From assembly GCA_947247005.1 (NCBI GenBank), contig OX365946.1:50742734-50806733 (forward strand): a DNA stretch of 64,000 nt. The letters run 5' to 3'. The position numbers and the translations under genes were made by a program. This stretch comes from Spisula solida (lineage: Eukaryota; Mollusca; Bivalvia; Venerida; Mactridae). Of the stretch, positions 36,582 to 63,801 are shown piece after piece. Each line of letters starts with the position of its first letter. Positions within the stretch are counted from its first letter, which is position 1. The notes under the pieces were generated by a model that saw only the letters and a program-made list of their open reading frames with translations, made no database searches and was not told the DNA's origin.

Positions 36582-39500
36582 ATGAACACAATCATAGTTC
36601 TAGTATTCTGTGTAGCCGCTATATCGGCGCATCCCGGCTACAGGGACTTGATGCCTAACGGATATAGTGTACCTAATCCATGTGGTGGAGGCACGTGGGA
36701 AGCTGTGGGACATTTTGACCCTCTGCATCACACACACGATAAAAATACTTTTGGATTGGTAAGTCTGTGGCATTTATGACATATTTCTTTCATATTCATG
36801 TTCGAGTAACGGGATGCTCCATTACCGATCATCTCTTTATAATCTGATATACGCCTTGTCATTGTTTCACTTTTGTCGCCACTAAACAGCAAATACACGA
36901 CACAATATCATGTATTGGCGAAAATAATTTTTTTTAGTGTTATATGGTAGCCATTTTGTCGTATTTTCACATTGTTGCGGCGAAAATATGACGAGGCGTA
37001 AATCAGCCACCGTACTTTATCATACTAGATCACGGATTCAATTGAATAATTTGCTGGGTAGCTGTTGAACAGATTATATACATGTATAATTAAACACGGA
37101 CGTTACGCTCGATGTTGGCGTACATTAGCGTAACCAATTCCGACGTTGTTGACGTTTTTAACGATTTTTGACGCTTCAAGACTTATTTGGGTGTTTCGAA
37201 TACAATTTTTCTTATATTATGCCGTAAACCCCATATTTTTATTCGTCACATATTTCGCGATTGGTTTAAAAAATGTTGTTGTAAAATTAAAATGGTTTTG
37301 AGCAACCCGCTTGATTGATAAGTGCATTTTTACGCAATATGTATGGCAGTTTTTAGATCGGCCATATGGCGAGGCGGAGGGGTAACTAAGGCGTTACAGT
37401 CGTACATTTTAATTAAACATACAATAGAATATACCAATAATACGCTGCGTATCGTTCCATACAAGTAGATGATTTACATTTTGCCGAGACATTAAAATAC
37501 GTGTACAAAAATGAGAAAGTAACTTAGAAAATACTACGAAAACCACGTCCCGACAAGTGGCGCTTTTAATAACGCTAAACTTACTATTTCAAACTAAAAC
37601 ACCATAATTACATAAACCCCACAGCTCATACTTCATTCATACAAAATTTCATTTAAATCTGCTGTACATCGACTCTTTTGCTAAAACGGTTACGTTTCTA
37701 CCGAACACGTAGACGTTGACGTTACGTTAATTTCAAGGGTGTGACATTATGGCTAGATTTGCCAAAATTCATAAATAAAATTAAAGCTATGTTGAATGTA
37801 AGACTTATGCATATCAAAATACAGACAATTATATGTACTTTTTGATTGTAGTCGCTGTCGTTTTAATAAATGCATACTTCTTTAAATACTTTGAGGCATA
37901 GCAACATCACAATTTTAATTTGTGCACTTTTTGATGCCTGTGACATCGTGGCTAGAAAAAAGTATACCTATATTAAAAGCCTAATTCAAAGTCATAATCG
38001 TACAAATTATACCTAATTCAAAAGTAGGATGCATGCACTTTTTGTCAAAATAAAGATTATAGAAAGTCGACTTAAATTATAGAAAATACTGAAGTTTTAA
38101 CAAATCTTGTCGCGGAAAGAAATTAAATCTTACGTTTTCAGTTGAATATGTTTTTCGCTCACGGTTTGTTACTGGAAGTTTTGAACGGCACATAAATGAA
38201 ACAACGCGAAATGGAGTTGCCATCACGTCACCGCATCTACTTTTTGGGCGGATAAAGATACTTATATGAATTTGCCGAGCTGCTAAACATTGCGCATTGG
38301 TCAATTATGTTACATCTTACATGACGTTTTTGTGACGTTCTCCGTCATTCTATGTTTAATTTAATATATACTAATAATTAAACGTACATGCGGATCACAT
38401 TACTAGTATGGCGATTCTTTTATCTTGCTTGTGATATCAAAATATAAACAACCGTATTTCTAAAACGATTTTTATGCAATATTGAAGTGTAAAAATGTTA
38501 TAAATTGCCAATGTACGCCAACAATGAGCGTAACGTCACTCGTGACGTTGTGTCGAGTTTTGTATGTTCGCTTTACGAAAAAAGCGAAAATACGACATGG
38601 CGTAAATCAGGCACCATCATAACTTTATTATACTAGATCACGGATCCATGCAACTGAATATTGCTGGGTATAAATGTCAAACAGATTAAGGTTTGCTTAT
38701 TAGGTTGAGTTTATTTTGGCTGCATCAGTAGGTGTTTAAGATAGAGAACGAAAATGCGAGGTTGTCCAAATAGGACAGCCAAGTGTTATAAGTATCGCTA
38801 TCTATTTTGTAGCATAGCCAATCATATTGTCTATAAGGTGCGGGTTTTTTTTAAATAATGTATAATAAAAAATTTCCAATACTGACCCGGTCTATTGATT
38901 TTACATATAAAGATCAAGCCCAATTCAACAAATGAAATTAAATATTCGAGATAATTATGTGTAAGAATGGAATGCCATATTATAAATCGATTTGCACGTG
39001 AATCATTAGTCAGGCTGTATCTAGTGATTAGATGGTTTAGTGACGTGGCATCATCAACAACAAAATATGTTAGCAACGAAGCTTAATCAGTCCATTGACC
39101 GTTCTGTCAAACTACACCGGTCAATCAATGTGTGTTGTCTACTGTAGGATTTTGCAGCAGCGGGTCACCGATGGACTGTTGCCCTGTGTAACATGGACAG
39201 TGATCGTGATGGTAAGACGAACGGTGAAGAATTAGGAGATCCAAACTGCACATGGACAACAGGAGGCACACCAGCACAATCTGCCAGTGGCCACCCAGGT
39301 AATACACGTATAAATTATAGTCGTTACTGGTATGCTCTCATTAATAATTCCGGTTAAGCAACAGATTCGTTCACCAAAACGTAATGTTGCTCAACGACCG
39401 TATACTTATAGTACAAATGTTCACAACATTTGATCAGGCACTAATGAATTCGTCTTCGCGTGTTTCGGTTATTGTAATGAAAGACTGGTTAAAATAACAA

Positions 39501-43834: not shown

Positions 43835-46800
43835 ATGACGATTAATGGAACAAAATGCATTTCTTTGTTCATTGTTTCAGTTTTAATTTTACTGTTGGTG
43901 AATAGGGGATGCAGTTTTGAGTGCAAGCATGACGATTTTGATCTGAATAGATTAAAAGGGTAAATAATTCTTCTGAAAAAGAGTTTTGTAAATTTATTTT
44001 ATCAGTTTATATACAAGAAAACGTGATGTTGAGTCATTTCTGTTAACATAATTCTTATTTTCAGTCTTGAAGATCTACTGTCATTCAACAATATAAAATT
44101 TGTCAATTTTTATTTTATTTTTGGAAGTGGCTTAGAGACCTGTCTGGTTACCGGACCTCTAGTCTGGACCACAGGCCCTCGATGCGATTTTATGGTCCGG
44201 AAAATAAATATTACTCTATCTACGGCCCTCGATGCGATTTTATGGTCCGGAAAATAAATATTACTCTATCTACATATAGAGTAATATTTATTTTCCGGAC
44301 CATATATAGATAGAGTAATATTTATTTTCCGGACCATAAAATCGCATCGAGGGCCTGTGGTCTGGACAATGCTCGTAGGACTGTCTTGAGGTCCGGTAAT
44401 TGATTACATACATATGGACCATGTAGTCGCTCATTACACAATTTGCACACGTGATCGGTAATTTGTTTACCTCTCGCGGCGTGTAACTTGGTCAGTGCAT
44501 AATATGCTGAAATAAACAGTTTTAGACGACGTGATTAACTATTAACACGACGTGTACGTGAATTTCCTTTCTTATACTGATTGATATTTCATTTACAATT
44601 ATTAATAACGACTTTGATTTTAAAAAATCTAGTTTTACTGTGTCATACTGTCGAGCTGATCCCATAGACAGTCGCTAATTTACCAACGCCCGCGGCAATC
44701 GGCTATAGTTACCTGATGAGCGATAATTATTATAATCCACGAAGGTGCGAAAAATAGAAAACAACATCGTATGGATTTATGTAAACACATGTGAATATGC
44801 CGTTGTAAAATCACACCTGTCGCTTCTCAGAGGTAAACCATACACAAGGTAAACAATTTTAACGGCCGTTTGCCGCTCTGCGGAGGTGTCGTTCTACGGA
44901 GGTTAAAATAAGAGTGAAAACGAACGGGGGGAAATAAAAGTGCCGCTTCTCGGAGGTTGTCGCTTCTCAGAGGTGCCGTTTCGGGAGGTTATACTGTACA
45001 TATGAAATAAGCGGATTTAGCTCAGTGGTAACGCACTGGGCTGTCAATCCAGAGGTCGTGGGTTCAATCCCTGGCATCGGAACTTGACATTTCTGAAATA
45101 TTTATAATATTTCCCGGCTATATCTGGCCGTAAGGTCTGCAAAGTATCTGGAAGTGCCAGGAAGCTGTGTATCGGTGCTATACACCGGGCATATTAAAGA
45201 ACCAGGCTGTCTATTCGAAATAAGAGCTAGGCGCACCTCTGCAGCGCCGGACATGCCTGTATCTAATGTCTCTCTCTCCCTTCAGGGCTTTCTCTCAGTC
45301 TGATCCTCTGGTCAGATCATGCTGTATCTGCACTGGTAGAGGATGCTCCTGCGCCCTTGTGGCTGCAACATGGGTGAAGTGCCTTTGAACGTGCGTTCGC
45401 ATGAAAAGGGCGCTATATAAATCTGGTATATTTAAATAAATTACCTGACCTCTAGACAGTCCTACAAGCATTGCCTAGAGGTTCGGTTACCTTTAGTCTG
45501 GAGATCTGGTAATCAAACCTCTAGCCACTTCCTTTGTTTTTTTGTGATCACTCTTCGTCCGTCCGTCCGTCAACATTTGGCTTGTGTAGACACTAGAGGT
45601 CACAATTTTAGCCTAATCCTTATGAAACTTGGTCACAATGATCATCTCAACAAAATCTATGCCAAGTTCGATATTGGGTCATCTGGGGTCAAAAACTAGG
45701 TCACTAGGTCAAATTATAGAAAAACCTTGTGTAGTCACTAGAGGTCACAATTTTCACTTAATATTTATGAAACTTGGTCACAATGATCATCCTAACAAAA
45801 TCTATGTCAAGTTCGATATTGGGTCATCCGAGGTCAAAAACTAGGTCACAAGGTCAAATCATAGAAAAACCTTGTGTAGTCACTAGAGGTCAAACTTTTG
45901 AATTAATCTTTATGAAACTTGGTCACAATGATCATCTCAACAAAATCTATGTCAAGTTCGATATTGGGTCATCCGGGGTAAAAAACTAGGTCACAAGGTC
46001 AAATCATAGAAAAACCTTGTGTAGTCACTAGAGGTCACAATTTTGGCCTAATCCTTATGAAACTTGGTCACAATGATCATCTCAACAAAATGTAGGTCAA
46101 GTTCGATATTGGGTCATCTGGGGTCAAAAACTAGGTCACAAGGTCAAATCATAGAAAAACCTTGCATAGTCACTAGAGGTCACAGTTTTGACCTGATCAT
46201 TACGAAACTTGTTTACAATGATCATAACAACAAAATCTAGGTCAAGTTCGATATTGGGTCATCTGAGGTCAAAAACTAGGTCACATTGTCAAATCATAGA
46301 AAAACCTTGCATAGTCACTAGAGGTCACAGTTTTGGTCTAATCTTTATGAAACTCGGTCACAATGATCATCTCCACAAAATCTAGATCAAGTTCGATATT
46401 GGGTCATCTGGGGTAAAAATGTAGGTCATTAGGTCAATCATATAAAAACCTTGTGTAGTCACTAGAGGTCACAATATTGGCCTAATCTGTATAAAACTTG
46501 GTCACAATGACCATCTCAACAAAATCTAGGTCAAGTTCGACAGGTGAGCGACCTAGGGCCCTTTGGGCCCTCTTTGTTTTGTAATATTTTGTATAGTGAT
46601 TTTGTCGTATCAAATATACTATAAACAGTTGAGTTAATACATATTGCACTAGGTCTTTCATAGTGCCGTTCACAAAGGCTGAACACTTTAAAAGTTATTT
46701 CTTTGTAAAGTGACTTGTAAACTGGAACCATCTTGAAGAAGAATTTGTGCATGCAGACTCAGTTGATGGTTTTAAAAACTTAAGACGGCCCTCCTGCGCA

Positions 46801-49800
46801 AATAAAATCCCGTTTAATCCACTCCACTATCATGCACCATAGTTAATCTGCCCCTTCTACGGGTATCGAACAGATACAGAACAGAACAAAGTTTTCGTAT
46901 ACAATATAACTGATTGAGGCATTGACATGTAGCTACGGTTGAGTTAAACAAACATGGTTAGGCCTAGTACTTTGTTACTGTCTTTGGTTGCTGTGGTTCA
47001 GTATGTGGTGATGACGGCTGCCCATAGAGCGAAACTGTTAACTTAAGGCAGTTCCTTGGTTCAGTATGTGGTGATGACGGCTGCCCAACGAGCGAAACTG
47101 TTAACTTAAGGCTGTTCCATTGTTTCCTAAAGCTACATGTCATAACTGTGGAGAATCAGAATGGCTCAAGACAGGTACCAAGCTAGCTCAGTTTGCAGAG
47201 CTTCGGACTAGTAATACCAGGGGTTGTAGGTTAGACTCCCAAGTCTGATGCACTTTTTCCTCCTTATTTACTTCAATGTTGGGAGCCAATAATTACAGTA
47301 AATATGGTTTCAGATGCCCCAAGGATTAAGCAATAGGGTCCCATCCAAGAAATAAAGGGTGACTGTAGAGGAAGTGAAGTGACTGTGGAGACTGCATGTC
47401 TCATGACAGTCACCTGGCTAGCTAAGCTGGCTGGCAGACCTACAGACTAGTAATACCTGGGTGTTTGTTTGAGTTCCACATCGGGTGCACTTTTTATGCC
47501 CCACCAAATATTTGGGGGGTTATAGATTTGCCCCAGTCAGTCCCAAAATGTTGTGTCGTCAATAACTTGAATAGAAATTGTGCTACAGTCTTAACACTTC
47601 AATGGAATATTACTTATTAGTTAGCATTAATTGTTGTGCACCTAAATATTTTTATTTGAATCAGACCAGTATGAGCAGAGTTATTGTCCTTGGAATGATC
47701 AAATCGGCTTGTGTCATCCGTAACTTGAAAAGTGTTTGTGCTACAGTCATCAAACTTTGTAGGACTAGGAATATTAGTCAGCATAATCAGGAATGTTAAT
47801 CAGCATGTGCATTTGAGTAATGACCCTTGACATGGTCAAATTGCAAGTGGGAGCATCCATATCCTATGGACACATTTCTAGTATACAAATAAAAGTTTTT
47901 GTGCCAAAATGAAGATACGTCCTTTGCGAAGACAAGCGACGATTATAAGCTTCCTCCTATGTTTCTTCATTTACACCATAAGCGGTGTTCTGCTAAGGAT
48001 GCTGCAACCCTGGAAACATTTCTAAACGACCTGAAACGTATCTACTGGAGCGAAATGTACATAAATATATCTAAGGACTCATCTCAAGTATATTATTAAG
48101 GTCAGTCTTATATGCAGTCAAGATTTTAATCATGGGTTAATTTGACTCACCGTGCCCAATTTTAAAACAGAATTTAATACAGATTTTTGTGTTAAGGGGA
48201 TTGATTCGTTGTTTTTATAATGGTTAATTTATATTTCAGAACATGGTTATCCAGGTCGGATGACACTACAGCAGTAAACTTAACATACAAGATCAGTCTG
48301 TGTTCACCATTGACACCAAACGGGGCTCGTGACCATCAATGCCCTACCACATCATCAGTTTGTCTCATCTATGATAATGGTACTGCATTATCTGCAGGCA
48401 ACTTTAATGCTACAGCAGATCAGCTGACTGGAGGCAATAATGAAGATGAAGGTGAAATGTGGATAATTTTACCCGGTGATCCGTGTCCTGGAGAATCTCA
48501 TTATAACCTTACCACTTCTATCAATATCAAGTGTGGTCCAACTCTGGTAAGTCACAACATGCATTGTGAACCTTTCATACCATGTTTAACAGTTACATAA
48601 CTTTAATACCAGACCAGGTTATTCCAACAATGGGGCTTTAGTCCTATAAGTTTTGGGAAAATATTGTAATTGGCTAAGCATTCTTGATTGGTTGTTACTA
48701 ATAGATAACCTGTCCCCCTTTACATCATAAACTTACTGGTTTAATTGATTTTAAGGTCAGTAGGTCAGAAGTCAAGGTCAACATGACCTGGAACGTAAAA
48801 AGCCAGACTGTCATATGGGAACAAGCATGTTTTACAAAGATCTCATAGAAGGTTTTAATATTACAGTGATTTTTTTTGCTTGTTTGGGAAAGGGTCCCGG
48901 GTCTGTTTAGATTGGGAATGTTCACGTCATGACAACTTGAAATTGGGAATTTTCATGAAGCAGAAAGGCCAAATAAAACAGAAAAAGAGATTATATGTGA
49001 CTGTTAACTGGTTTCTGTAAACTTTTATACTGCTTGACCTCTTGTCAAAAATATTCATAACTTTGTCATTTTATGTTCAGTTTTGATTTTTTTTAGATCT
49101 TCATTGCAAATTTCTCCCTTCAAATTTGGGAAAATTATAGCCTTTTTAGCTCACCTAAGGTAAGCTATTGTGATCACCCTTTTGTCTGTCGTCCGTCGTG
49201 CGCCGTGAACCGTGCGCCGTCAACAATTGGACTGTTATCACTCTAGAAGTAACAGTTTTCACTAAATCTTTATGAAACTTGGTTGCAATGTTTGTCTCTA
49301 TGAAATCTAGGTCATGTTTGTAACTGGGTCATCTGGGGTCAAAAACTAGGTTACTAGGTCACATCAAAGAAAATTCTTGTAAACACTCTAGAGGTCACAT
49401 TTTTGATATAATCTTAATGAAACTTGGTCACAATGTGTATCTCTATGAAATTTGGGTCAAGATCGCAACTGGGTCACCTGGGGTCAAAAACTAGGTCACC
49501 AGATCACATTGAAGAAAAACCTTGTTAACACTCTAGAGGTCACATTTTTAACCTAATCTTAATGAAACCTGGTCACAATTTTTGTCTCTAGTATGATATC
49601 TAGGTCAAGTTTGTAACTTGGTCATCTGGGGTCAAAACTAGGTCAAATCAAAGAAAAACCTTGTTAACATTCTAGAGGTCACATTTTTTAGCTCCACTAT
49701 TGGTAGAATAAGGGGAGCTATTGCAGTCACCCGAGCGTCGTCGTAACACTTTTGTTAAAGTTTAGGTACAGGTTTTTTAACCTCTTATATTCTCTAAGTC

Positions 49801-52800
49801 CTTTGAGATGTTGCTTTCATACTTTGCATACTTGTTTGCCATCATGACCCCAACCCATATGCAGGAGTAGGTAACTCTATCAGGCATTTTGTTGAAATTA
49901 TGCCCCTTTTTGGACTAAGAAATGCTTATTTGTTTACCTTCATGACCAAGAGGACCTACACATGAGAAGGTAACGGTTCTGCATAATTTGTCCCCCTTTT
50001 TCGACTTAGAAGCCCCAACCTCTACACAGCAGAGGGTAATGCTGCTGTTATGAAGCATTTTGTTTTGAATATATTATAATTGTACTATCCTAGCATGGCG
50101 CTGCGAATAGTGGAGCACGCTGTTCGTGGACAGCTCTTGTTAAATAATCTTAATGAAACTTGGTCTCAATGTGTATCTCTATGAAATCTAGGTCACAAGG
50201 TCACATTGAAGAAAAACCTTGTTAACACTTTAGAGGTTATATTTTTAACCTAATCTTTATAAAACTTGGTCACAATGTTTGTCTCTATGAAATCTAGGTC
50301 AAGTTTGTAACCGGGTCATCTGGGGTCAAAAACTAGGTCACATCAAAGAAAAATATTGTTAACTCTCCAGTGGTCACGCTTTTTGCCTAATCTTTTTGAA
50401 ACTTGGTCACAATGTTTGTCACTATGAAATCTAGGTCAAGTCCGTAACTGGGTTATCTGGGTTCAAAAACTAGGTCACCATATTACATCAAAGAAAACCC
50501 TTGTTTATACTTTAGAGGTCGCATTTTTTACCTCATCTTTATAAAACCTGGTCACAAAGTGTGCATTTGTAAAATCTACATCAAATATTAAGGTCTAACA
50601 TAACAAATACTGATTCTACCTAAACTGCTAGACATCAGATGAGCGCTTTAGGGCCAATGGCCCTCTTGTTTAAATTGAGAAGGTACCATTTACCGGTAGC
50701 AAACAAAAAAAGGAAAAAAAATCACTGACATTATAAGCTCGTTTATACAGGTAGAATAAAGTCATTCTTGAATTGCTGTCTACTTTCAATGCTGCGATTT
50801 TATAGAAATCATTATAGCATATGTCATGTTTTGTATATTAAAGTAGGTGAATGCTTTCAATAATTCTCGTCAACATTTCACAAAATTAATCAAGAAGTAA
50901 TTAGTGTTTTTTTTTATTGTAACTTTGTTTATTGATTATTAAATGAACTTTAAATTTTATTGAAAGTTAATTTCCATTGAAGGGGTCTCCTGTGTTCCTG
51001 AGTTATACTGGATGTGTAAGTTATTTTGAATGGGAGACAAATGTCTACTGCAAGAATCCAGCCGTTGTAAACGAGGTTCAGTGTTACTTGTATGACGATA
51101 AATGGAATAGGTATGACTTGTCTCCCTTAGCAAAGACAAAGGGAGCTTACCTAGTGTCTTCAGAGGGAGTTACTGACATGTACATCAATGTCTGTAGAGA
51201 TATCAATCCAGGTAAGTGTCACAGTCACTGGGCTGTTTTTCAACTTTTGGGATGGGACCCTAACTTAGTAAATGGAGGATCTTGGTATTTCACTAATTTT
51301 GTTACATGGGGAACTGATTTTGTAGGAATAGTACTTTTCATTTTGAGGAAAACTGCATGATTTTAAAGACTTTTTCCTGGGGAATAATAATGTCGTGCAA
51401 TAAGTCACTGTTGTGGATGTTTTGTTCCATGTTTTTAAGTACATGATACCTCATTTTGACCAGTGTTTCTGACTTCTCATTTGAGGCCCTGCTTCGTGTT
51501 GCAGCATATTTGTTATGTTGCATGGTTGTCTCTTGGTTGTCTCTGGGTTTTGTGTAAACTATTACAGTAAACAAGTTCAGTTTTCAATTATGCCATTAGG
51601 CTTACTTGTCCAATACTTTCCTGCTGACAGCATGATATTCTACCCTATCTAAGATAAGTCTAAAGATTGTGTGAGTGGAAACATAAGGGAAATATCCTTC
51701 CTAATATTCTTTATAGTGATTTAATGCAAGAAAACAAAACATCTTTATTTTTCAAAATTATTTAAAATAAACTACATCAATTTGATGATTCCTTCTGATA
51801 TTGCATTATGTTTTATATTCAGGTTCCCAAACCAGTGGATGTCCTGCTGGCTCAGGGGCTTGTAGAAAATCAGGACTGACCTCTGAAAGTTTTGGCGTAC
51901 CGATGGATCCTTTGAAGATTGGTGCTGACGGTCGCTTGATCTTGCGTTATAACACGTCTTCATCCGACACTAAACCTGCTGGCTGTACATCACCTCCTTC
52001 CACTACAATTGTGTTCATTTGTCCAAAAAGAGGAGAGGTAATGTATTTTGTAACAACAGTCACACACTGAGATTGCTCTCAATCATCTATGTCACTTCAT
52101 AACATCACTCTCAATGTCACTGCATGAGATCATTGCCAATGTTACTGCAACAGATCATTCTCAGTGTCATTGCATGAGATCACTCTCAATGTCACTGCAT
52201 GATATCAGTCTCAGTGTCATATAGTATACTGCATAACATCACCCTCAATATTACCACATGAGATCACTCTGAATGTCATATACTGCATGAGATCACTCTG
52301 AATGTCACTGTATGAGATCACTCTCTATGTCACTGCATGATATCATTCTCAGTGTCATATACTGCATGAGATCACCTTCAATGTTACTGTATTAGATCAC
52401 TCTCAATGTCACTATATGAGATCCCTCTCAATGTCATATACTGCATGAGATCATTCTCAATGTCATATACTGCATGAGATCATTCTCAATGTCATATACT
52501 GCATGAGATCACTCTCAATGTTACTGCATGAGATCATTCTCAATGTCATTTTTCATCAGTGATTCATTGGCCATATGAGTGTATATTCATTCTCACTAGA
52601 TATGTATTGATTACATGTATAATGCATAGATGGTTTAATATCATCTACAGACACAGATCGGGATATTGCATAAATATGCAGTTGCAAAAAATTGTTTGAA
52701 ACGAAAAAGCGCCTGATGCATATATTTGAATGTAGATGTAAATACTCCAATTAACAGCCCTAATCTTTATTTAATTATCTTGCTATATGTGCCTGGAAGG

Positions 52801-55800
52801 AAAAATGTAAAAGGGCAAGAAACACACAAATAGGCATAACATTTTCACTTTTGGAGGTTGGTGAAAGCCCTGAATTATGTACATGAATGTCATCTATCAA
52901 GATATTTAAATGTCATCTCTGGAGATAAAACTACACTTATATATTGCTATAGTGGTTCGCAGGTGGTGAGGTGGCAATTTAGAGCCTAGATGGCCCTCTT
53001 GTTTACATTCTAAGCTTAAAGATAGATATGTTTTATTATAATGCATAATTTTATAAAGTATGCCCTTATGCTGTTGTAACGTTCTTATTCTCTAGTATTG
53101 ATTTTGTATTGGTGTTGTTAATTGTCATAGGAATTCATATCTTTATCTGTCTACCTAACCTTTACATCATCCCAAATCCACTATCAGACAATTTATTTAC
53201 CATTGACAGATCTTCATAAGCAAACTTTCATTCCCCTCCTAGGGGACTTATAAATGTAATACAAAAGAAACTGCTGAAGTTGACACCTGCCCAAAAGTAC
53301 AACCTTTGCTAAGTCTTTTATATCCGTCTTTCTTTCCTTTAAAATAATTTAATTTCAATGGGGCAAAATTTCAAAGTTTTGGTAAAGACAAGGATTTCGG
53401 ATTTCATGAAAAATGGCAAGGTCAAAATTCACACAAATCAGAAATCATTCAAAATTCAAACAGATAAAATAGTCGTTTATATTTGCATATGCAAGTTAAC
53501 TTCCCAAAACCCAGTCTTATACCAGACTGAACTTAAAAGCAAGTGTGCAGCTGCTGTAAACTTGACATATTTATTGGTATTATTATTCCTGATGATTGTG
53601 GATTTAATTTCATGGTTGATGACATCCACGAAATCCATGAAAATTAAATCCCCCACAAATATTAATGATTTGACAGTATAATAAAGTCAGCATTATCCAA
53701 AATATAACTGTCTGTCATAAAACTAATGAATCCATAACATATTTATTCCATTTGAAGGGATATGGTACAAATATCAATTGTGTTCATTGCCACCTAAACT
53801 AATGATCTAAACAAGCTGATATTGTACTCACCATCCCTAGAAAGGTAATTGAAAAATAACTGTTTTATCAAAGCACTTATGTAGTTATCTTCCATTCATA
53901 CAGGGTCCTACAATGCCGGAAAAATTCGGAAATCCAGATTTGCTGCATTAGACCAGTACAAAATAAAAGTTATATGATGAAAAAATTCAAAGAATTGACC
54001 AAGTTATGGTCATTTGATGTTTTGTGATCTGAATTTTAACAATAAAACAAAATGTATCAGCTTGTTCCACAGTGCATACAGCAAGATACATCAGCATTGA
54101 GTATAGTAGAAAAGTTATGATTATGTTCCAATGGAGAAACTGGTAAATAGAAGTCATGTAAAGTTAAATTTATCAAACCGACTGTAACAACACCATGTTT
54201 TATGAAAGCTCAAAATTCGTTACTGTAGTTTATAAATTTTTTCAATCAACTAAGAGCAAGGTGGTATATCAATACATATTATGTAATTGATTGATGATTG
54301 ATCTGGGTTTCCAATAAGATAATGTAACATATACCTGTGGGGGATTAGTGTAGGAGAGTACAAATCGATTCCAGTAAAATAATATTATATAGATTTAATG
54401 AGTCTTACTTTTTATTAGTCCCCTACTGGTTTTTGATCGGAGGGGACTATAGGTTTGCCCTCCGTCCGTCAGTCTGTCTGTCCGTCAGTCATTCTGTCCA
54501 AAAATCTGGATCCTAACATAATTCAAACAGTTTCCAAGCTAGATTTATGAAACTTGGTATGTGGATAGGGGCAATAAGGGGATAATGCACGTCCAAAAAC
54601 ATTTTAATTCCGACCAAAATTGTGGTTGCTATGGCAACAGAAACATTGAAAATGGCTTAAAACCAGTACGGACTTCTGTATTGCTTGCAATTCTTAGTTA
54701 CTTGTTTATTGTGGTATTTACTGTAGATGTATACCTGAGTTACAGACAGGCCTTTTCCCCAGAACATTTTTAAGGGGCTAGGGTAATGCTAGGATTTGTG
54801 CTTACGGTGATCTGCAAGAACAGCCAAAAAGGTCTAGAAGAGAAATCTACAAAGTTATCTATAGTTTAAAGGCTTTTTCACACAATACAAGACTTAGTCA
54901 TTATATCACTCAAATAACACAATACAGACCTAAAATATAAACACCCTTACTGATTTAAAGACACCATTTCAGGATTAAAGGCGCTGAGGGAAAGCCAATT
55001 CTGGTTTTAAGACGATGGGGTACCACTGCACCTTCTGACCCTGGGGAAGGGCCTGACAGAATAAAATATTATATAAAATGTCAAAAAGGAATTTCATTTT
55101 TGTTCCAGTATGACGGTTGATAATGGTTAAGACCACTTACTTTTTCTCCCACATATGCATGTAGTATCGATTCGGTGCTAGATTTCTGTTTGTCTGGATG
55201 GATTAATGGTGGATAGATGGATGTCACCAAGTTTGCTTGCCCTTTTGTTCTCCTTAACCACTAGTCCAATTTCAATGAAACTTCACTTGAATACTTTGTA
55301 CATGTACCTCGCCTAGTTGTGCATATTTAGGTCAGATGATTTTTGAGTTATGGCCCTTTGTGGGAGCCTTTTTTTGGTGTAAAAACCTTCTTAAGTTACC
55401 GATATGGTTACAAATCGTCCTTTAAATGTATTCTGTATAATCTATTTCAGAACAAAGATCCGTTGATCATTGAGAGTTTTGATTGTCAGTATGTGATAGA
55501 GTGGCAGACAGAATATGCTTGTCCTGAAACCAAACTCTCCAATACTTCATGTGTGCTCACCAAAGCTGATGCTGATATAGATATTGACCTTCGACCTTTA
55601 CGACGACAAAAAGGTCAGACATTTTGCATGTATATTGAATATTCCAGGGGTCCCACTTGTGACTGGAGTTGAAGGATCGTTTCGAAGATTTTTGTATATG
55701 ATTTTACTATTAATAAATAGCCAAAATATATGTATATAAAATTGACCTCTTATTCGAAATCCTAACCATCAAAAGATGGCTTTTTGGAAATTGAATAGGC

Positions 55801-58800
55801 TAACAATCATTTCGAGGGTCATAGAAACTCCTGAAGTTTGTTAATCTAGCAGAGCACTTTGTAGCGCAACATGGGAGCTAATCCATGCCCACTATATTTA
55901 ATTAAACAGAGGTAACGGGATAAAGATGCTCCGTAGCGCTTCAGTGCTTACAACCTCTTGAAATCGAAATATTAAAAAATATGGCTTGGTTACATGTTAT
56001 ATAATAGTTTATTTGTTTTTGAAGATAATCCGTATCAAGTAAGCTATACAGATACAAGCTCCAGTACAAATGATGTGTATGACTTCTACTTGAACATCTG
56101 TGAAGAGATAGATTTTGGATGTCCTGAAAACAAAAATGATCGTTTTGTACCCGCTTGTCAGACATTGGAGGGTACTCCTACCTTTGCTAAAGCTATGGGA
56201 TCTACACACCATGTGAAACTTACGTAAGTTGTTGTCAATGTTCGTAGCTGACTAACTGTTATTGTCTGACCAGATTAAACTGAGACTCTGATCAAAGTTC
56301 GTATACGCCCGGCTGTACTCGGCTGTTTTCGATTTGTATGTTTATTTACTACATGTGCAGTAATCTCTGCATTTGTAACAAAATTCAAAATAAAATCAAG
56401 CATGAATAGTAGCGCAATGGAAACGTTTTCGCCTTTAATGCCAGTGGTCGTAGGTTCAAAACTTACTACAGTAAAACCTCGTTATCTCGAGGACCCATCG
56501 GGACAAGCCAAATGCTCGAGTTAAGCCAGGTGCTCGAAATATCCGAAGTCTATGATGAATTGTTGTTATGACTAAGTGTAACTGTGTTTATAATGAAAAC
56601 ACGTATGATACATATATTTGGTTGTAACTACGAATATTTTCATTGTTTATCAAGTCTATACGCAATTTGAATCGTGTGGACATTTGCCGAATTCAACAAA
56701 TTGCATATGAAAGTCGTAATGAATCATTTAACATTAAATATGAAACTCCATTTAACGGTTGAAATAAAAGTTCGCATCGGCAAAAAGATAAAACCACTTA
56801 AAGCGCACGATAGATCCCATATGTTTGAACAAACACCCACGCACAAAAATCACACGTGATAAAATAAAACCCGGATGCAAAGTCGATCCAGTTTTCAGCA
56901 CAGGGATACGGCTCATTGAGTAAAAAACATGCACTATATTATCAATGATAATTTATTTTGGGCATGATGTTTAGCTGAATGAGTTATATCCCTGTGGTTT
57001 CCAATTGAAACGCGCACGACAATTTGGAGACATCAAACGCGGCGGTCTTTCGACTGACTTCAAACGCGACGCACATCAAAAAAATTGCCGGTACAGTTGG
57101 GAGTAGTGTTACGCCAGAGTTCCATACCGCAGTATGAATTCGCCAATCTGCGCATAGTGTAGATTCAATTGACATTTAATTTGCTACTTTACAAAGTCGA
57201 CAATTTTTTTATTCTTCAGGGTTGTTCGACAAGAATTGGATTTAATCGCGGACTTGACTTACTTCACTTATTCAGTATCGGACACGTGAAATTGCACATG
57301 TAGTACGTAAGCTTACATTCGCAGGTTTTCATGAAATACGGAATATGAAATAATTTTGAAATGGTTTTCACTTGCAGTTTTATAACGAACGGAGCCTAAA
57401 TATTTAAGATTCTACATGTAAGTCGGTTTATCTTACGATATCTAAAAGTCTGTGCGAGTCAGTACGTTCGAAGCAACGATGTTGCATTTAATAATTCTAG
57501 TTCTCGTAAGTTCCCAATTGTTGCCTATTGAACTTGTTCTGAAACGTATGTGTTGTTTAAATCACGCTCATTAATTAAATATCTTCTACTTCGTGTTTAA
57601 TGTAACAAATCGAAAATACGGAAATCAATTTAATAAGTGTTAGGGATTACGATATTGTCATAAAATGTAATTATCACGATGTGTGAAAAATACGGACCGT
57701 AACAAAATTTAGTATGACATTTTTCGGAGGTGTGAAATTTCGCTCTGTTGATTGCCTCGAGATAAGGTAATTAATTATTGTTGAAAATTGTTGATTGGAC
57801 CGACACCTGTGCTCGAATTAGACCGGATGCTCGTAATAACTTTACTCGAGTTAGAGGGATAAATTAATGTACAATATAGAGCAAATTCGTCGGGACTTTG
57901 AAATTTGCTCGAATTAGGCCGGTTGCTCGAATAATCGCTGCTCGTATTACCGAGGTTTTACTGTATAACCTTTTGACATTAATATTTTTACAACATTCTT
58001 TCCTTGAATCAAGGGGTTTATGTTTAAAACTTTTCCCGTATGTTCTTATATTATTTGATCTTTAATTTCGATTTTTGTATTATTTCCAATTGCATATTTC
58101 TTTCTTTCAAGTACATGAACAATGTTTCAACGACTTCGCCATTATAGATTTAATGTACGCCAGAATTGTGTAATGGATATGTGAACATAGGGCTGGTTAT
58201 AATTCACGAATAGCATACTTGCATATAAAGAAAAAAAATTAAATAAAAAATATTGCGTTTGCCTCGAACCCGATACCCTTTGGTCTACTAACCACACACT
58301 AACCCACTAAACCATCACAGATTGTTATCTAATAGCAACTCAATAAAGCCACATATAGCGATAAATGTAATTATATTTCATAACTTCTGAAATTTCCAGA
58401 CTTGAACAAATTATGCAAGGAGTCTCAGTTTCATCTGGTCAGACAATGCTAAATGTCCAGCCTTTAGTTTATACTTAGGGGATTATGGTAAGAATGAAGA
58501 TAAAATTATCACTTTGACAGATGGTAGTTAATGTTCCGTAGTTCATAGTCAAACCAACACGATGCATACAGTATCAGTAAGTTAATGTTCCATGAAGGCA
58601 TAGTCAAACCAACACGATGCATACAGTATCAGTTAGTTAATTTTCCATGAAGGCATCGTCAAACCAACACGATGCATACAGTATCAGTTAGTTAATGCTC
58701 CATGAAGGCATCGTCAAACCAACACGATGCATACAGTATCACACTTTACTAGGGTCTTCGGGGCTGGACAATCAGATATTAAAAAGCAGCCTCGAGGAAC

Positions 58801-61800
58801 AGCAAGCCTGTCTACATGAACGTAATGCCTGCAGTGTGTTTTAGTGGCAAAAAATACCTAATATGCATGTATTGTGTGGCTGTTAGTCAGTCTGCGCATA
58901 TAGTACAGTCCCGCCAGAGCTGCTCTCTGTAGACCACCAACCTCTCTATATAACAACAGCTTCAAAATCCCTTTGCCAATATCTGCTATACATTCAACCT
59001 CTGTAGACCAACAACCTCTGAGCATGGGCCAATATTTGTAACTCCCAAATAAAAGGGTGTTGCTCTACAGAGGTTGTACTGTATTTTATCCATCAGTAAG
59101 TCAGAACATTTTTGAATAATTGTACCTGAAAAGCATTTCTGTTTGCAACCCAGCTGGTGTAGGGATTGAACCCACAACCTTCAGATCAGCAGTCAGTAGC
59201 CCTTACCACTGGACCTCTTGTTCACCCACAACTCTAGATATTCAGACAACAAGGTTTATATACTTTGTATTGTATGTGTTTAGATATGCAGACGACAAGT
59301 TTTATATACATTGTGTTGTATGTGTTTAGGTATGCAGACGACAAGTTTTATATACATTGTGTTGTATGTGGTTCAGGTATGCAGACGACAAGTTTTATAT
59401 ACATTGTGTTGTATGTGGTTCAGGTATGCAGACGACAAGTTTTATATACATTGTGTTGTATGTGGTTCAGGTATGCAGACAACAAGTTTTATATACTTTG
59501 TGTTGTATGTGTTTTGGTATGACAAGTTTTATATACTTTGTGTTGTATGTGTTCAGGTATGCAGACGACAAGTTTTATATACTTTGTGTTGTATGTGTTT
59601 TGGTATGACAAGTTTTATATACTTTGTGTTGTATGTGTTCAGGTATGCAGACGACAAGTTTTATATACATTGTGTTGTATGTGTTTAGGTATGCAGACGA
59701 CAAGTTTTATATACTTTGTGTTGTATGTGTTTAGGTATGCAGACGACAAGTTTTATATACTTTGTATTGTATGTGTTTAGATATGCAGACGACAAGTTTT
59801 ATATACATTGTGTTGTATGTGTTTAGGTATGCAGACGACAAGTTTTATATACATTGTGTTGTATGTGTTTAGGTATGCAGACGACAAGTTTTATATACAT
59901 TGTGTTGTATGTGTTTAGGTATGCAGACAACAAGTTTTATATACTTTGTGTTGTATGTGTTTAGATATGACAAGTTTTATACACTTTGTGTTGTATGTGT
60001 TTAGGTATGCAGACAACAAGTTTTATATACTTTGTATTGTATGTGTTTAGGTATGCAGACGACAAGTTTTATATACTTTGTATTGTATGTGTTTAGGTAT
60101 GCAGACAACAAGTTTTATATACTTTGTATTGTATGTGTTTAGGTATGCAGACAACAAGTTTTATATACTTTGTGTTGTATGTGTTTAGGTATGCAGACAA
60201 CAAGTTTTATATACTTTGTATTGTATGTGTTTAGGTATGCAGACGACAAGTTTTATATACTTTGTATTGTATGTGTTTAGGTATGCAGACAACAAGTTTT
60301 ATATACATTGTATTGTATGTGTTTAGGTATGCAGACAACAAGTTTTATATACTTTGTGTTGTATGTGTTTAGGTATGCAGACGACAAGTTGACACTGGTA
60401 TATAAAGGAGGAGAGGTGTGTAACCATAATCGCTTCAAGAGACAGACGATAATTAACTTCATCTGTAAGGAAGATGCAGGTAATAATATGCTTGCTACTA
60501 TCAGGCCCTTCCCCAGAAACTTTTTTAAGGCGCTGTGGCGTTGCTAAGATTTGAGCTTACACAGATCCATGAGAATGGCTAAAAAATTTGAAAGTGATAA
60601 CTGCACATTATCCTTAATTTAAAGGCTAATTTAAGAACATTTTCACACAATACAAGCCATAATCACACAAATAACACAATACAATCTAGGGAAAGCTAAG
60701 TCTGGCTTTAAGGTGCTGGGGTACCACAAGGCCTTCTGCCCCTGGGGAACGGCCTGAATATAATTATAACAGTCTTTACTGGATTTACATGAAATCAACT
60801 GATTTCCATTACATTGGTTACTTGCAAGGTTGTGAATTCACTACTAGATAATATTCATGTACCAGATGTCTTTGCCTTCGAATTTTTATATTGAATGGAT
60901 GTGATGAATTTGTCTTTGACTGTTTATGTTGTAATGAATGTTTTGAAGCAATAGAAAGTTTATGTACCTATGAGCTATAATGTCTAAACTTCAGTTTTAA
61001 GTATAAACTTCAAATATTTACACAGTAATCAGCTCTATTACTTGTTTGCTCTTATTATTTGTTTGCTCTATAACTTGTTTGTATTTTTGATAATGTACAA
61101 ATATTTCCAAAATTGCTAGAAAATAACTATTTTTTCCGAAAAGACGGTGTGTCATGTCAATAAATCTACTTCTTGTTATATACTCAGCGTCAATGAAAAG
61201 TAACCACCCTATTGACTCTTATATTTTAATATTCACGTTACACTGAGTTAAAAGCCGAACGCGACTATGTTTTGACCTTACTGTGTAGTCACAGCTATCC
61301 TATTTAACAATATTCAAATGTACACACTATAAAACTTTTGTACCAATAGGTCATATTGTATACAATATATATATACAAGTGGTCAATTTTCAGCGACGCC
61401 CTGTATATTTACATCATTGTTATATTTACATCATTATTATATTTACATCATTGTTCTATATTTATATCATTGTTTAAATTTGTTACATTTATATCATTGT
61501 TATTAACCTATAGGAAATGGTGAACCAAAATATATTAGAGAAAGTGACTGTATATACTTCTTTGATTGGGAGACGAGATACGCATGCTTAGATCACCCGA
61601 AGGATGAATCGTGTCGGGTAAATGTTGACGGTCAGAGATATGACATGTCATCTCTGGTTCGAAATACGGGTAAGTTTTATGTAATTTTTATGACATTTCT
61701 GTCAACATGCAGCTTCAGCCTTCTGTCTATGCATGTAAATACTTTGTTTATTGTAGTGTCACCCCTGAAAGGCCCTGCCAATTTTGACTCATGAGACACC

Positions 61801-63801
61801 TGTTTTTTATGCCCCGACATCTAGTGATTGTCCTATCGGTTCGTCTGTTTATCTATGCTTTCATTCGTTTCATTGAAAATGTTAATCAAAACTTTCAAGT
61901 ACTGAAACTCATATATTTTCATAGTCCATCAGGGAATTGCTTTCAAACTTAGCACATTTGTTTACCATCATAAACATCTTACACTGTCAATGCCATGTAA
62001 CACTATCCAACATTTCAACGTAATTATTGCCCCTGATTGACTAAGCCAGTTATTTTGGCCAAGGCTTCCACCGGTGCATTAGTGTTCACTGAATACAGTC
62101 TTGTTTTAGTTAACAGTACCTCCCGAATTCCTTCTCTTATTGCCGGGTGCCTAGCTGAGATGGTGCTATGGTTACCATTCTTTTAACTAGCTAGAGGCTC
62201 AACAACCAACCACATAAGTTATAAACCAGCTTTCGCCAGGATTCGAACCTTCGATCTCCCACTCCCATGGCAGATGCTCTAGCCATTAGGCCAGGTACAA
62301 GATATGTATATTATAATAATTGTATGTTTGTAAGCAGGAAGCACAACGGTACTGTTTTATCAAAGCACTTACAGAAATAGTAAACTTTACGTTCAAATTT
62401 AAATTATTTTTAACTGCAAATTTTGGGACAGGTATGGTTTGTAGGAGTTCTTAATTAATGATATTAGTTTTGCTAAATTAAATTTATTTAGTACCATATT
62501 TTGTAGCCGTAAAATATTTAATAATATAAAGAATTTAAATTAGTGTGTACCTTTATGATTTCTGTACACGCTTTGATAAAACAGTACCCAGGTGTTTTAC
62601 AGACACCAATCTGTAGGACTGTATAGGACTGATATTGCACTACATGATATTTATATATTCATGGATTGGTGGATCAATATTTACTGTTCTCATATTATTG
62701 TTCGATATTTCAGGAGTTAATTGGGTTGCCTTACATGAAAACAAGGACAAGTATGGGACAGGAGAGTACTATATCAATGTTTGTCACAATGTCTTACAGT
62801 CAGAGGGAGCATCTAGATGTGATCCCGGTGCAGCAATTTGTTACCGTGGTAACTATTTTTTTCTTTTAACATTTTTTAAACTAATTTATTGGATAATTAT
62901 CTCTTGTACTTGTGGTCTGTTCTTTTTGTTTTATTATTGAAAGTATTTCTGATTTACATTTTCCCCCTAAAGTTTGTGTACATGTTTAGTTGTCTACCCT
63001 TAACACTTGGTGTAAGCTATTTTTGTAATGAAAATAAAATGAAATTATGCTTAGTTCACTAAATGCTTTGTACTTCAAATGCTCTGTTCTCTACTAGTAG
63101 GTATTCTCTGCTCTAAATGCTCTGTTATCTAGGTATTCTCTGCTCTAAATGCTCTGTTATCTAGGTATTCTCTGCTCTAAATGCTCTGTTATCTAGGTAT
63201 TCTCTGCTCTAAATGCTCTGTTATCTAGGTATTCTCTGCTCTAAATGCTCTGTTATCTAGGTATTCTCTGCTCTAAATGCTCTGTTATCTAGGTATTCTC
63301 TGCTCTAAATGCTCTGTTATCTAGGTATTCTCTGCTCTAAATGCTCTGTTATCTGGGTATTCTCTGCTCTAAATGCTCTGTTATCTAGGTATTCTCTGCT
63401 CTAAATGCTCTGTTATCTAGGTATTCTCTGCTCTAAATGCTCTGTTATCTAGGTATTCTCTGCTCTAAATGCTCTGTAATATAGGTATTCTCTGCACTAA
63501 ATGCCCTGTTACCTAGGTATTTTCTGTTCTAAATGCTCTGTTACCTAGGTATTCTCTCTTCTAAATGCTCTGTTACCTAGGTATTCTCTGCCCTGAATGC
63601 TCTGCTCTTAAAGTGTTCATCCTGTACACAATTAATATGTTTATATTCTAGAGACCACATCTTCATTAAACCTAGGACGTTATGAAACAGCACCAATCTA
63701 TGTCCTAGGGACTAACAGTACACAGATAAAATACACAAATGGTGATATATGTAAGGGTACAACAAAAATTACATCAACTGTGACGTTCCACTGTAGACCA
63801 G
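43835..63801 (+). CDS. IGF2R: Cation-independent mannose-6-phosphate receptor (IGF2R) homologue, N-terminal 10 exons (3' partial)
   Basis: Exons: 43835-43959, 48240-48546, 50983-51211, 51823-52037, 55451-55613, 56025-56223, 60373-60479, 61514-61669, 62714-62848, 63652-63801. All are GT-AG and in frame, giving 595 residues before the window ends in an intron. Residues 1-27 form a signal peptide (hydrophobic ISLFIVSVLILLLV). Four consecutive CIMR domains follow: D1 exons 1-2, D2 exons 3-4, D3 exons 5-7, D4 exons 8-10. Each of D2-D4 starts with the family pattern C-x-Y-F/V-x-E/D-W-x-T-x-Y/V-x-C (e.g. CVSYFEWETNVYC) and has I/V-N-V/I-C (MYINVCRDI). D3 keeps Q in ACQTLEG, R in FKRQT, and E and Y in RESDCIYFF, the known mannose-6-phosphate contacts. 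Several N-glycosylation sequons lie in D1. The receptor sorts acid hydrolases to lysosomes. The transmembrane and IGF-II-binding domain 11 equivalents lie beyond the window. Confidence 0.93.
44163..44369. repeat. About 205-bp palindrome with internally duplicated arm
   Basis: A segment of about 56 bp containing GGCCCTCGATGCGATTTTAT and GGTCCGGAAAATAAATATTA lies twice in direct order (from about 44176 and 44224). It is followed by inverted copies: one short (about 44277-44305) and one full (about 44311-44356). The outermost 'gtctggaccacaggcc' pairs with 'ggcctgtggtctggac'. Confidence 0.8.
45011..45436 (+). repeat. tRNA-Asp-headed SINE, copy 2
   Basis: Same structure as 34800-35229. Here the B box is better preserved (GGGTTCAATCCC) and the anticodon loop is CTGTCAA. 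'aaataa' on both sides may be a target duplication. It is nested inside the element at 44123-45532. Confidence 0.85.
45541..46581 (+). repeat. 145-bp tandem-repeat element in receptor intron 1
   Basis: Seven copies of a 145-bp unit start with 'ctagaggtcaca' at about 45593, 45739, 45883, 46028, 46173, 46318 and 46462. The unit includes 'tatgaaacttggtcacaatg' and 'gttcgatattgggtcatc'. The left end carries a gtccgtccgtcc run and the right end 'gggccctttgggccctctttg'. A diverged relative is at 49145-50671. Short open frames across the units are artefacts. Confidence 0.85.
46993..47129. repeat. Two-copy tandem duplication, about 69-bp unit
   Basis: GTGGTTCAGTATGTGGTGAT to 'cttaaggcagttcc' is repeated once with few differences, in receptor intron 1. 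Confidence 0.8.
47165..47500 (+). repeat. Pair of tRNA-like SINE segments
   Basis: Two related segments (about 47185-47260 and 47405-47495) share 'gctagct-ag', 'gactagtaatacc-ggg' and 'gcactttt', resembling degenerate tRNA A and B boxes. They look like two copies of a SINE head in receptor intron 1. Confidence 0.4.
49145..50671 (+). repeat. Tandem-repeat element in receptor intron 2, with nested insertion
   Basis: Starts 'agctcacctaaggtaagcta', has a gtcgtccgtcg run, then diverged units of about 145 bp ('gaaacttggtcacaatg', 'gggtcatctggggtcaaaaa'), ending 'gggccaatggccctcttgtt'. At 49688-50142 one unit is interrupted by a different element, starting 'agctccactattgg' and ending with 'aatagtggagc' and 'cagctcttgtt'. 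Confidence 0.75.
52075..52552 (+). repeat. 'catgagatcactctcaatgtca' minisatellite, receptor intron 4
   Basis: About 18 imperfect copies with 25- to 29-bp spacing, the longer ones containing 'tatactg'. The array starts about 40 bases after the donor of exon 4 (52037). Confidence 0.85.
54417..54706 (+). repeat. CCCCTACCGGTTTT-type element, copy 2
   Basis: Same order as 28684-28950: 'cccctactggtttttgatcgg', a gtccgtc run, 'gaaacttggtatgtggatag' and 'ttgctatggcaacagaaaca'. The right terminal repeat is degraded ('aaaccagtacggact'). It lies in receptor intron 4. Confidence 0.7.
54747..55055. repeat. CAGGCC-TTCCCCAG MITE, copy 1
   Basis: Starts CAGGCCTTTTCCCCAGAAC and ends CTGGGGAAGGGCCTG (inverted). 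Internal 'tttcacacaatacaag' and 'aataacacaatac' match the copy at 60502-60756. Confidence 0.75.
56405..56465 (+). repeat. tRNA-like SINE fragment
   Basis: 'agcgcaatggaaacg' and 'gtcgtaggttcaaaac' resemble degenerate A and B boxes, directly before a pogo-like element. Similar minus-strand fragments lie at 58261-58320, 59143-59228 and 62235-62295. None folds as an intact tRNA. Confidence 0.35.
56469..57963. mobile_element. 1.5-kb pogo/Tigger-like non-autonomous element in receptor intron 6
   Basis: The ends CAGTAAAACCTCG and CGAGGTTTTACTG are perfect inverted repeats flanked by TA on both sides (56467-56468, 57964-57965). 'gctcgag/gctcgaat' motifs repeat near both ends. No intact transposase frame is present. 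The ends and TA target match the pogo/Tigger pattern of the Tc1/mariner superfamily. Confidence 0.8.
58525..58741 (+). repeat. Four-copy tandem repeat, about 56-bp unit
   Basis: The unit with 'catgaaggcat-gtcaaacc' and 'aacacgatgcatacagtatc' is repeated about four times in receptor intron 6. Confidence 0.85.
58906..59081. repeat. 176-bp MITE flanked by TA, related to 12675-12851
   Basis: Starts CAGTCCCGCCAGAGCTGC and ends CTACAGAGGTTGTACTG, with TA on each side. Internal 'caacctctctatataacaac' is shared with the copies at 12675 and 41727. Confidence 0.7.
59143..59228 (-). repeat. tRNA-like SINE head, minus strand
   Basis: The minus strand shows GTCCAGTGGTAAGGGC and GGTTGTGGGTTCAATCCC, matching A- and B-box patterns and resembling the head of the SINE at 15295-15625. 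It abuts the exon 7 minisatellite. Confidence 0.5.
59235..60372 (+). repeat. 46-47-bp minisatellite carrying copies of the exon 7 splice acceptor
   Basis: About 25 units, each GTATGCAGACGACAAG followed by 'ttttatatactttgtgttg' and 'tatgtgtttag'. The array ends exactly at receptor exon 7 (60373), whose first 16 bases are GTATGCAGACGACAAG, so each unit holds a copy of the acceptor AG and the first exon bases. Three units are shortened to 'gtatgacaag' or 'atatgacaag', and a few have 'gttcag' in place of 'gtttag'. Confidence 0.95.
60502..60756. repeat. CAGGCCCTTCCCCAG MITE, copy 2
   Basis: Starts CAGGCCCTTCCCCAGAAAC and ends CTGGGGAACGGCCTG (inverted). It begins only 22 bases after receptor exon 7 ends (60479). 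Same family as 54747-55055. Confidence 0.75.
60757..61513. other. Receptor intron 7, remainder
   Basis: AT-rich, with a 'tatatttacatcattgtt' imperfect tandem repeat at about 61405-61505 that reaches to within about 10 bases of the exon 8 acceptor. No gene seen. Confidence 0.4.
62235..62295 (-). repeat. tRNA-like SINE fragment, minus strand
   Basis: The minus strand reads TGGCCTAATGGCTAGAGCAT with GGTTCGAATCC, good A- and B-box matches. The anticodon stem has mismatches and the acceptor ends do not pair well, so a SINE head is likelier than a tRNA gene. It lies in receptor intron 8. Confidence 0.5.
63074..63608 (+). repeat. 32-bp minisatellite in receptor intron 9
   Basis: About 16 copies of 'gtattctctgctctaaatgc' plus 'tctgttatctag', nearly identical in the middle and diverged at the right edge. 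The array ends about 43 bases before the exon 10 acceptor (63651). Most units contain a TAG/G acceptor-like end. Confidence 0.92.

What the first reader, a model, noticed from the sequence alone, without database searches (positions are those of the whole stretch)
59235..60479. A minisatellite has multiplied the 3' splice site and first coding bases of receptor exon 7
The 46-47-bp unit contains the acceptor ...gtttag and the first 16 bases of exon 7 (GTATGCAGACGACAAG). About 25 copies precede the true exon. The amplification therefore spread from, or includes, a functional intron-exon border. Reading from the nearest upstream decoy acceptor in the exon 7 phase gives Y A D N K F Y I L C V V C V and then TAG, the TAG being the last bases before the true exon. 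Decoy use there would truncate the receptor inside domain 3, or trigger decay; units ending 'gttcag' shift frame instead. The true acceptor has a U/G-rich tract hardly better than the decoys. This could be a length-variable splice modulator of a lysosomal sorting receptor.
Basis: partly seen in the sequence, partly recalled or inferred. Interest (0 to 1): 0.75.

Follow-up and report, generated by a model that had tools for sequence, protein, structure and literature searches.

The report
Minisatellite copied from a splice border
In a clam-like bivalve, the junction between an intron and an exon of a lysosomal sorting receptor gene has been copied about 25 times in a row, a kind of DNA repeat (a 'mirage') described in lancelets; it would make a good test of how cells pick one splice site among near-identical copies, but nothing here shows that it regulates the gene.

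Summary
A 46-bp array (59235-60390) carries 24 full copies, plus one degenerate 5' copy, of the 3' splice border of exon 60373-60479 in a cation-independent mannose-6-phosphate receptor gene. Each unit is about 30 nt of intron end plus the first 16 nt of the exon. The host is a heterodont bivalve (nearest protein Mactra antiquata, 75%). The exon bases encode residues kept in most of 70 homologues, so the array was copied from the exon and not the reverse. Of 24 decoy junctions, 19 are AG|GT, 3 AG|AT and 2 lack AG. All 22 decoys with AG give premature stops, and 13 of 24 decoys score at least as high as the true acceptor. This matches 'mirages' of amphioxus genes, where RT-PCR suggested normal splicing (PMC3087553, PMC3902484; passages). 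The best reading is a recently turned-over, mostly neutral mirage, with the true acceptor chosen by position. The 'length-variable splice modulator' is possible but unsupported. Recursive splicing is possible on paper, but the regenerated donor is weak. The papers that my searches listed showed no molluscan mirage.

The parts
59235..60372 (+). mirage-type minisatellite: 24 full 40-47-bp units plus a degenerate 5' copy at 59238-59283; the common unit = 16 nt copied from the exon start + about 30 nt copied from the intron end
60343..60372 (+). functional 3' splice site region, itself the last copy of the intronic half-unit
56025..56223 (+). upstream exon ('exon 6'), phase-2 end AC|gtaagt; joins in frame to 60373
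61514..61669 (+). next exon of the receptor
63098..63604 (+). second minisatellite (32 bp, about 16 copies) in another intron of the same gene, ending 47 nt before exon 63652; 15 of 16 junctions read AG|GT, but it is not a copy of that exon's border

Best explanation
This is a mirage-type minisatellite. A 46-bp segment straddling the 3' splice border of the exon at 60373 was tandemly duplicated and then amplified, probably by slippage or unequal exchange, with local homogenisation of units (shown: the anatomy, the direction from exon to array, low unit diversity and neighbour similarity; inferred: the amplification mechanism). The functional acceptor is itself the last repeat, so its pyrimidine tract evolves with the array (inferred). 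Splicing most likely still uses 60373, because it is the acceptor nearest the exon's donor, and decoy products, which all carry early stops, would be lost to nonsense-mediated decay (inferred). The array is then mainly a tolerated by-product with a small splicing-error cost.
For: 16-nt match of array to exon start, 23 sites versus 0.96 expected by chance. Exon-start residues: Y in 62, D in 65 and L in 56 of 70 homologues covering the site; 1 of 70 flagged with an insertion near the junction and 2 of 70 with a gap in the first 8 residues. The 18 units of 46 bp are 91-100% identical and vary at 5 positions. Neighbouring units are more alike than shuffled (38 differences versus mean 53.5, p=0.00055), and the 5' edge copy is degenerate. 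1 of 18 exon borders tested has copies within 4 kb. The same architecture, with AG/GT in many but not all repeats and regular splicing by RT-PCR, is reported for amphioxus globin and Adh3, and duplicated splice sites without aberrant mRNA for Adh and TnC (PMC3087553 and PMC3902484, passages).
Against: No RNA data: normal splicing is carried over from another phylum. On a matrix from only 8 acceptors the true site is the weakest of nine in the gene (1.40; the next, 61514, is 1.46 leave-one-out), 13 of 24 decoys score at least as high, and it ranks 56th among the 215 AGs of the intron plus itself. The nearest decoys would make exons of 153, 199 and 245 nt, still ordinary sizes, so exon definition alone may not exclude them.
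Confidence: 0.74

Rival explanations
1. Splice attenuator: decoys compete with the true acceptor, and because every decoy product has an early stop, array length sets receptor level through nonsense-mediated decay.
For: All 22 decoys with AG give premature stops, 19 within 17 codons; skipping the exon also gives a stop after 3 codons; the true acceptor is not stronger than the decoys.
Against: A stop in out-of-frame or intronic reading is expected without selection. Amphioxus mirages are reported without aberrant splicing. No length or expression data here.
Confidence: 0.14
2. Recursive-splicing ladder: AG|GTATGC junctions act as ratchet points, so the array is removed stepwise and decoy use is erased.
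For: 19 of 24 junctions are AG|GT, the layout of a ratchet point (PMC8605326, passages).
Against: After joining to exon 6 the regenerated donor TAC|GTATGC pairs with U1 at only -0.8 kcal/mol, against -5.6 or -7.2 for array donors of the AG|GT kind. In PMC8605326 weakened ratchet donors led mostly to inclusion of the cryptic exon (a minor skipped product remained at kuz), so inclusion rather than erasure is predicted. The intron is 4.1 kb, against about 50 kb at kuz.
Confidence: 0.05
3. Assembly or collapse artefact: the copy number, or the array itself, is wrong.
For: Near-identical short repeats are hard to assemble; PMC3087553 notes an amphioxus mirage aberrantly assembled in the draft genome.
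Against: 12 distinct unit types in locally structured order argue against a simple duplication error; the gene continues in frame on both sides. The window's assembly could not be reached.
Confidence: 0.05
4. Protein diversity: array segments are used as in-frame micro-exons.
For: 4 of 220 decoy acceptor/donor combinations are open in frame.
Against: Only 4 of 220; 1 of 70 homologues is flagged with an insertion near the site.
Confidence: 0.02

Closest known systems
[quoted passage not shown] PMC3087553, PMC3902484, passages)
   Same: Tandem units made of intron end plus exon start; AG/GT in many but not all units; signs of concerted turnover; functional border at the end of the array.
   Different: Bivalve receptor gene, not a cephalochordate; 46-bp unit with 24-25 copies, against 3-6 copies of 150-160 bp in BflGb6 (Adh3 units are 10-72 bp); length variation and splicing not tested here.
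Internal tandem repeats at exon-intron boundaries of human genes in segmental duplications (PMC2812944, passages)
   Same: Minisatellite-scale repeats at exon borders, with potential to create introns.
   Different: Primate-specific paralogues with transcript evidence; none here.
Recursive-splicing ratchet points (PMC8605326, passages)
   Same: Juxtaposed AG|GT.
   Different: Weak regenerated donor, a 4.1-kb intron, and many near-identical copies.
Intron gain by tandem duplication around AG|GT (Rogers model, named in the passages of PMC3087553; PMC4974935, listing only)
   Same: Most units are GT...AG segments, so a tandem copy could in principle become an intron.
   Different: The array lies inside an existing intron and no new intron is shown.

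Membership tests
Mirage minisatellite | Tandem repeats that span an intron-exon border of a gene | tested here: met
   that the gene is active is inferred from its intact conserved frame
Mirage minisatellite | AG/GT splice signals in many but not all units | tested here: met
   19 AG|GT, 3 AG|AT, 2 TG|GT of 24
Mirage minisatellite | Concerted evolution inside the cluster, with edge units excluded | tested here: met
   p=0.00055 for neighbour similarity; degenerate 5' copy. The 3' edge is not excluded: the last half-unit is typical
Mirage minisatellite | Length instability between haplotypes or cells | not testable with these tools
   one assembly only; the genome search did not answer in 11 tries
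Mirage minisatellite | Regular splicing not disturbed | not testable with these tools
   no RNA data
Recursive-splicing ratchet point | Juxtaposed AG|GT | tested here: met
   19 of 24
Recursive-splicing ratchet point | Regenerated donor stronger than the donor of the cryptic exon | tested here: not met
   -0.8 versus -5.6 or -7.2 kcal/mol with the U1 5' end
Cation-independent mannose-6-phosphate receptor (host gene) | CIMR repeats and full alignment to known receptors | tested here: met
   PF00878 E=2.3e-68; 6um1 E=3.3e-221; Mactra antiquata 75%. Only 553 residues lie in the window

The most novel reading that the evidence does not exclude
Mirages are not a lancelet oddity but occur in molluscs, and this one is a length-variable splice attenuator. 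About 22 near-identical acceptors, every one leading to a premature stop, compete with the true site, so array length tunes the amount of a lysosomal sorting receptor between individuals or even between cells.
Probability: 0.12. Interest if true: 0.7.

Novelty: new member of a known kind. Interest (0 to 1): 0.42.

Why it matters
Splice-site choice is usually studied with sites that differ in sequence. Here about two dozen acceptors are the same or nearly so (three decoys share the true site's 30 intron bases exactly, two of them also the next 6), and mainly position tells them apart: a natural experiment on exon definition and acceptor scanning. It would also extend border-copying minisatellites from cephalochordates to molluscs, and it bears on how tandem copies of AG|GT could seed new introns.

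Tried and rejected
Reverse origin (exon start captured from an intronic repeat): rejected, because the residues are kept in most of 70 homologues, a set that runs from cnidarians to vertebrates (residues of single rows seen for the first 25 only). RNA structure of the last three units plus the exon: no more stable than shuffles (z 0.34). Coding array: rejected, because all 22 read-throughs hit stops. Rfam: 0 matches at gathering thresholds; ARAGORN: 0 tRNAs. The second array (63098-63604) is not a border copy: 0 copies of the 63652 acceptor border within 4 kb. One exact 26-base unit pattern in viral contigs: 0 matches, uninformative for an animal. The acceptor matrix rests on 8 sites and separates poorly: true site 56th of 216 AGs. 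My first exon model had one exon shifted by a base or two and read stops; one search is the corrected one. PMC12783039 (earthworm metallothionein), PMC2206037 (amphioxus huntingtin) and PMC4039745 (C. elegans minisatellites) were seen as passages, which show no border-copying array. The homologue set is 71 proteins (3, 68); 70 of 71 cover the site, and it is uneven (many vertebrates), so the counts are not independent. Paper searches return capped lists (for example 15 of 346, 20 of 29, 15 of 44), so absence of a molluscan case is absence from what I saw.

Full report
What is there. The window has a tandem array at 59235-60390, period 46, 25.5 copies, 92% matches. Splitting it at the exon-like segment gives 24 full units before the exon that begins at 60373: 18 of 46 bp, 3 of 47 bp and 3 of 40 bp, plus a degenerate 5' copy at 59238-59283. 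The common unit is GTATGCAGACGACAAG followed by about 30 nt ending in TTTAG or TTCAG. Both halves are far beyond chance (23 sites versus 0.96 expected; 22 versus 0), and every site found lies in the array or at the exon start.

Host gene. I built a nine-exon model by hand (48240-48546, 50983-51211, 51823-52037, 55451-55613, 56025-56223, 60373-60479, 61514-61669, 62714-62848, 63652-63801; corrected after a misplaced exon). It joins in frame without stops over 553 residues. It aligns with the solved cation-independent mannose-6-phosphate receptor over residues 10-553 (6um1, E=3.3e-221) and with Pfam CIMR. The nearest receptors are Mactra antiquata 75%, Mercenaria mercenaria 62%, Dreissena polymorpha 53% and Mya arenaria 52%; the Branchiostoma hit is 41%. 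The host is thus most likely a heterodont bivalve, not a lancelet; the species is not known. The exon after the array lies in domain 3: the query matches 1q25 to its last residue; that this entry holds domains 1-3 is recalled.

Direction. The repeated 16 nt encode the start of YADDKL. Among the 70 of 71 homologues that cover the site, Y is kept in 62, D in 65 and L in 56; one is flagged with an insertion near the junction and two have a gap in the first 8 residues. Mactra reads YADGEL and Mercenaria YADGRL. The exon sequence is therefore ancestral and the array was copied from it. As a control, 1 of 18 exon borders of the gene has copies within 4 kb (6 or fewer mismatches in 28 nt), this one with 18.

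Turnover. The 46-bp units vary at 5 positions and are 91-100% identical. Neighbouring units are more alike than shuffled order predicts (38 versus 53.5 differences, p=0.00055), 12 unit types exist, and two 86-bp pairs (units 5-6 and 7-8) differ at one scored site. Ongoing local amplification fits this; the mechanism is inferred. The functional acceptor is itself the last repeat: three decoys share its 30 intron bases exactly and two of them also the next 6.

Splice signals. Of 24 decoy junctions 19 are AG|GT, 3 AG|AT and 2 TG|GT. With a small acceptor matrix from the gene's other 8 acceptors the true site scores 1.40, the lowest of nine (the others 1.46-11.67 leave-one-out), and 13 of 24 decoys score at least as high; it ranks 56th of 216 AGs in and at the end of the intron. 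Eight acceptors are too few for more than an indication. Reading through from each of the 22 decoys that have AG always meets a stop: 19 within 17 codons, and units 2-4 after 64, 77 and 88 codons. Skipping the exon gives a stop after 3 codons. Of 220 possible decoy micro-exons, 4 stay open in frame. So decoy use would be harmful, or at best silent through decay.

Recursion. AG|GT junctions look like ratchet points, so decoy use could in principle be undone by a second step. But the donor made by joining exon 6 to a decoy (TAC|GTATGC) pairs with U1 at -0.8 kcal/mol, against -5.6 or -7.2 for the array's AG|GT donors and -5.0 to -11.6 for the gene's nine real donors (U1 letters recalled). In Drosophila weakened ratchet donors led mostly to inclusion of the cryptic exon, with a minor skipped product at kuz (PMC8605326, passages). 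Efficient erasure is therefore unlikely.

What it is. Amphioxus genes carry 'mirages', minisatellite-like duplications of intron-exon borders. [quoted passage not shown] RT-PCR suggested no interference with regular splicing, and somatic instability is reported at Adh3 (PMC3087553, passages; the original Adh paper is not held). PGBD5 and TnC are further cases (PMC3902484, one passage). The present array meets the sequence-level features tested. Length instability and normal splicing could not be tested. The listings, capped and from an open-access library only, showed no molluscan case.

Verdict. The regulatory reading is possible but has no support beyond the fact that the decoys score as well as the true site. 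Most likely this is a neutral mirage, whose interest is as a natural experiment in acceptor choice and as an apparent extension of mirages to molluscs.

Noticed in passing
63098-63604: A second minisatellite in the same gene (32 bp, about 16 copies, TAG|GTATTC junctions, 15 of 16 AG|GT) ends 47 nt before the acceptor of exon 63652; it could also offer decoy acceptors but is not a border copy.
   Followed up: partly
59145-59235, 62235-62300, 47170-47250: tRNA-like B-box segments that look like tRNA-derived SINE remnants, one just 5' of the array; recognised by eye only, and ARAGORN calls no tRNA.
   Followed up: no
45581-46540, 49233-49688, 50209-50578: Tandem arrays of 137-145 bp with similar consensus (by eye), upstream of and inside the first intron of the receptor model; they look like one dispersed repeat family.
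   Followed up: no
61404-61474: A 17-bp tandem array ends 39 nt before exon 61514, so three introns of this gene have tandem arrays within 50 nt of, or touching, their acceptor.
   Followed up: no
39148-39354: An open frame that resembles a temptin-like domain (by eye, no search), probably a separate gene upstream.
   Followed up: no
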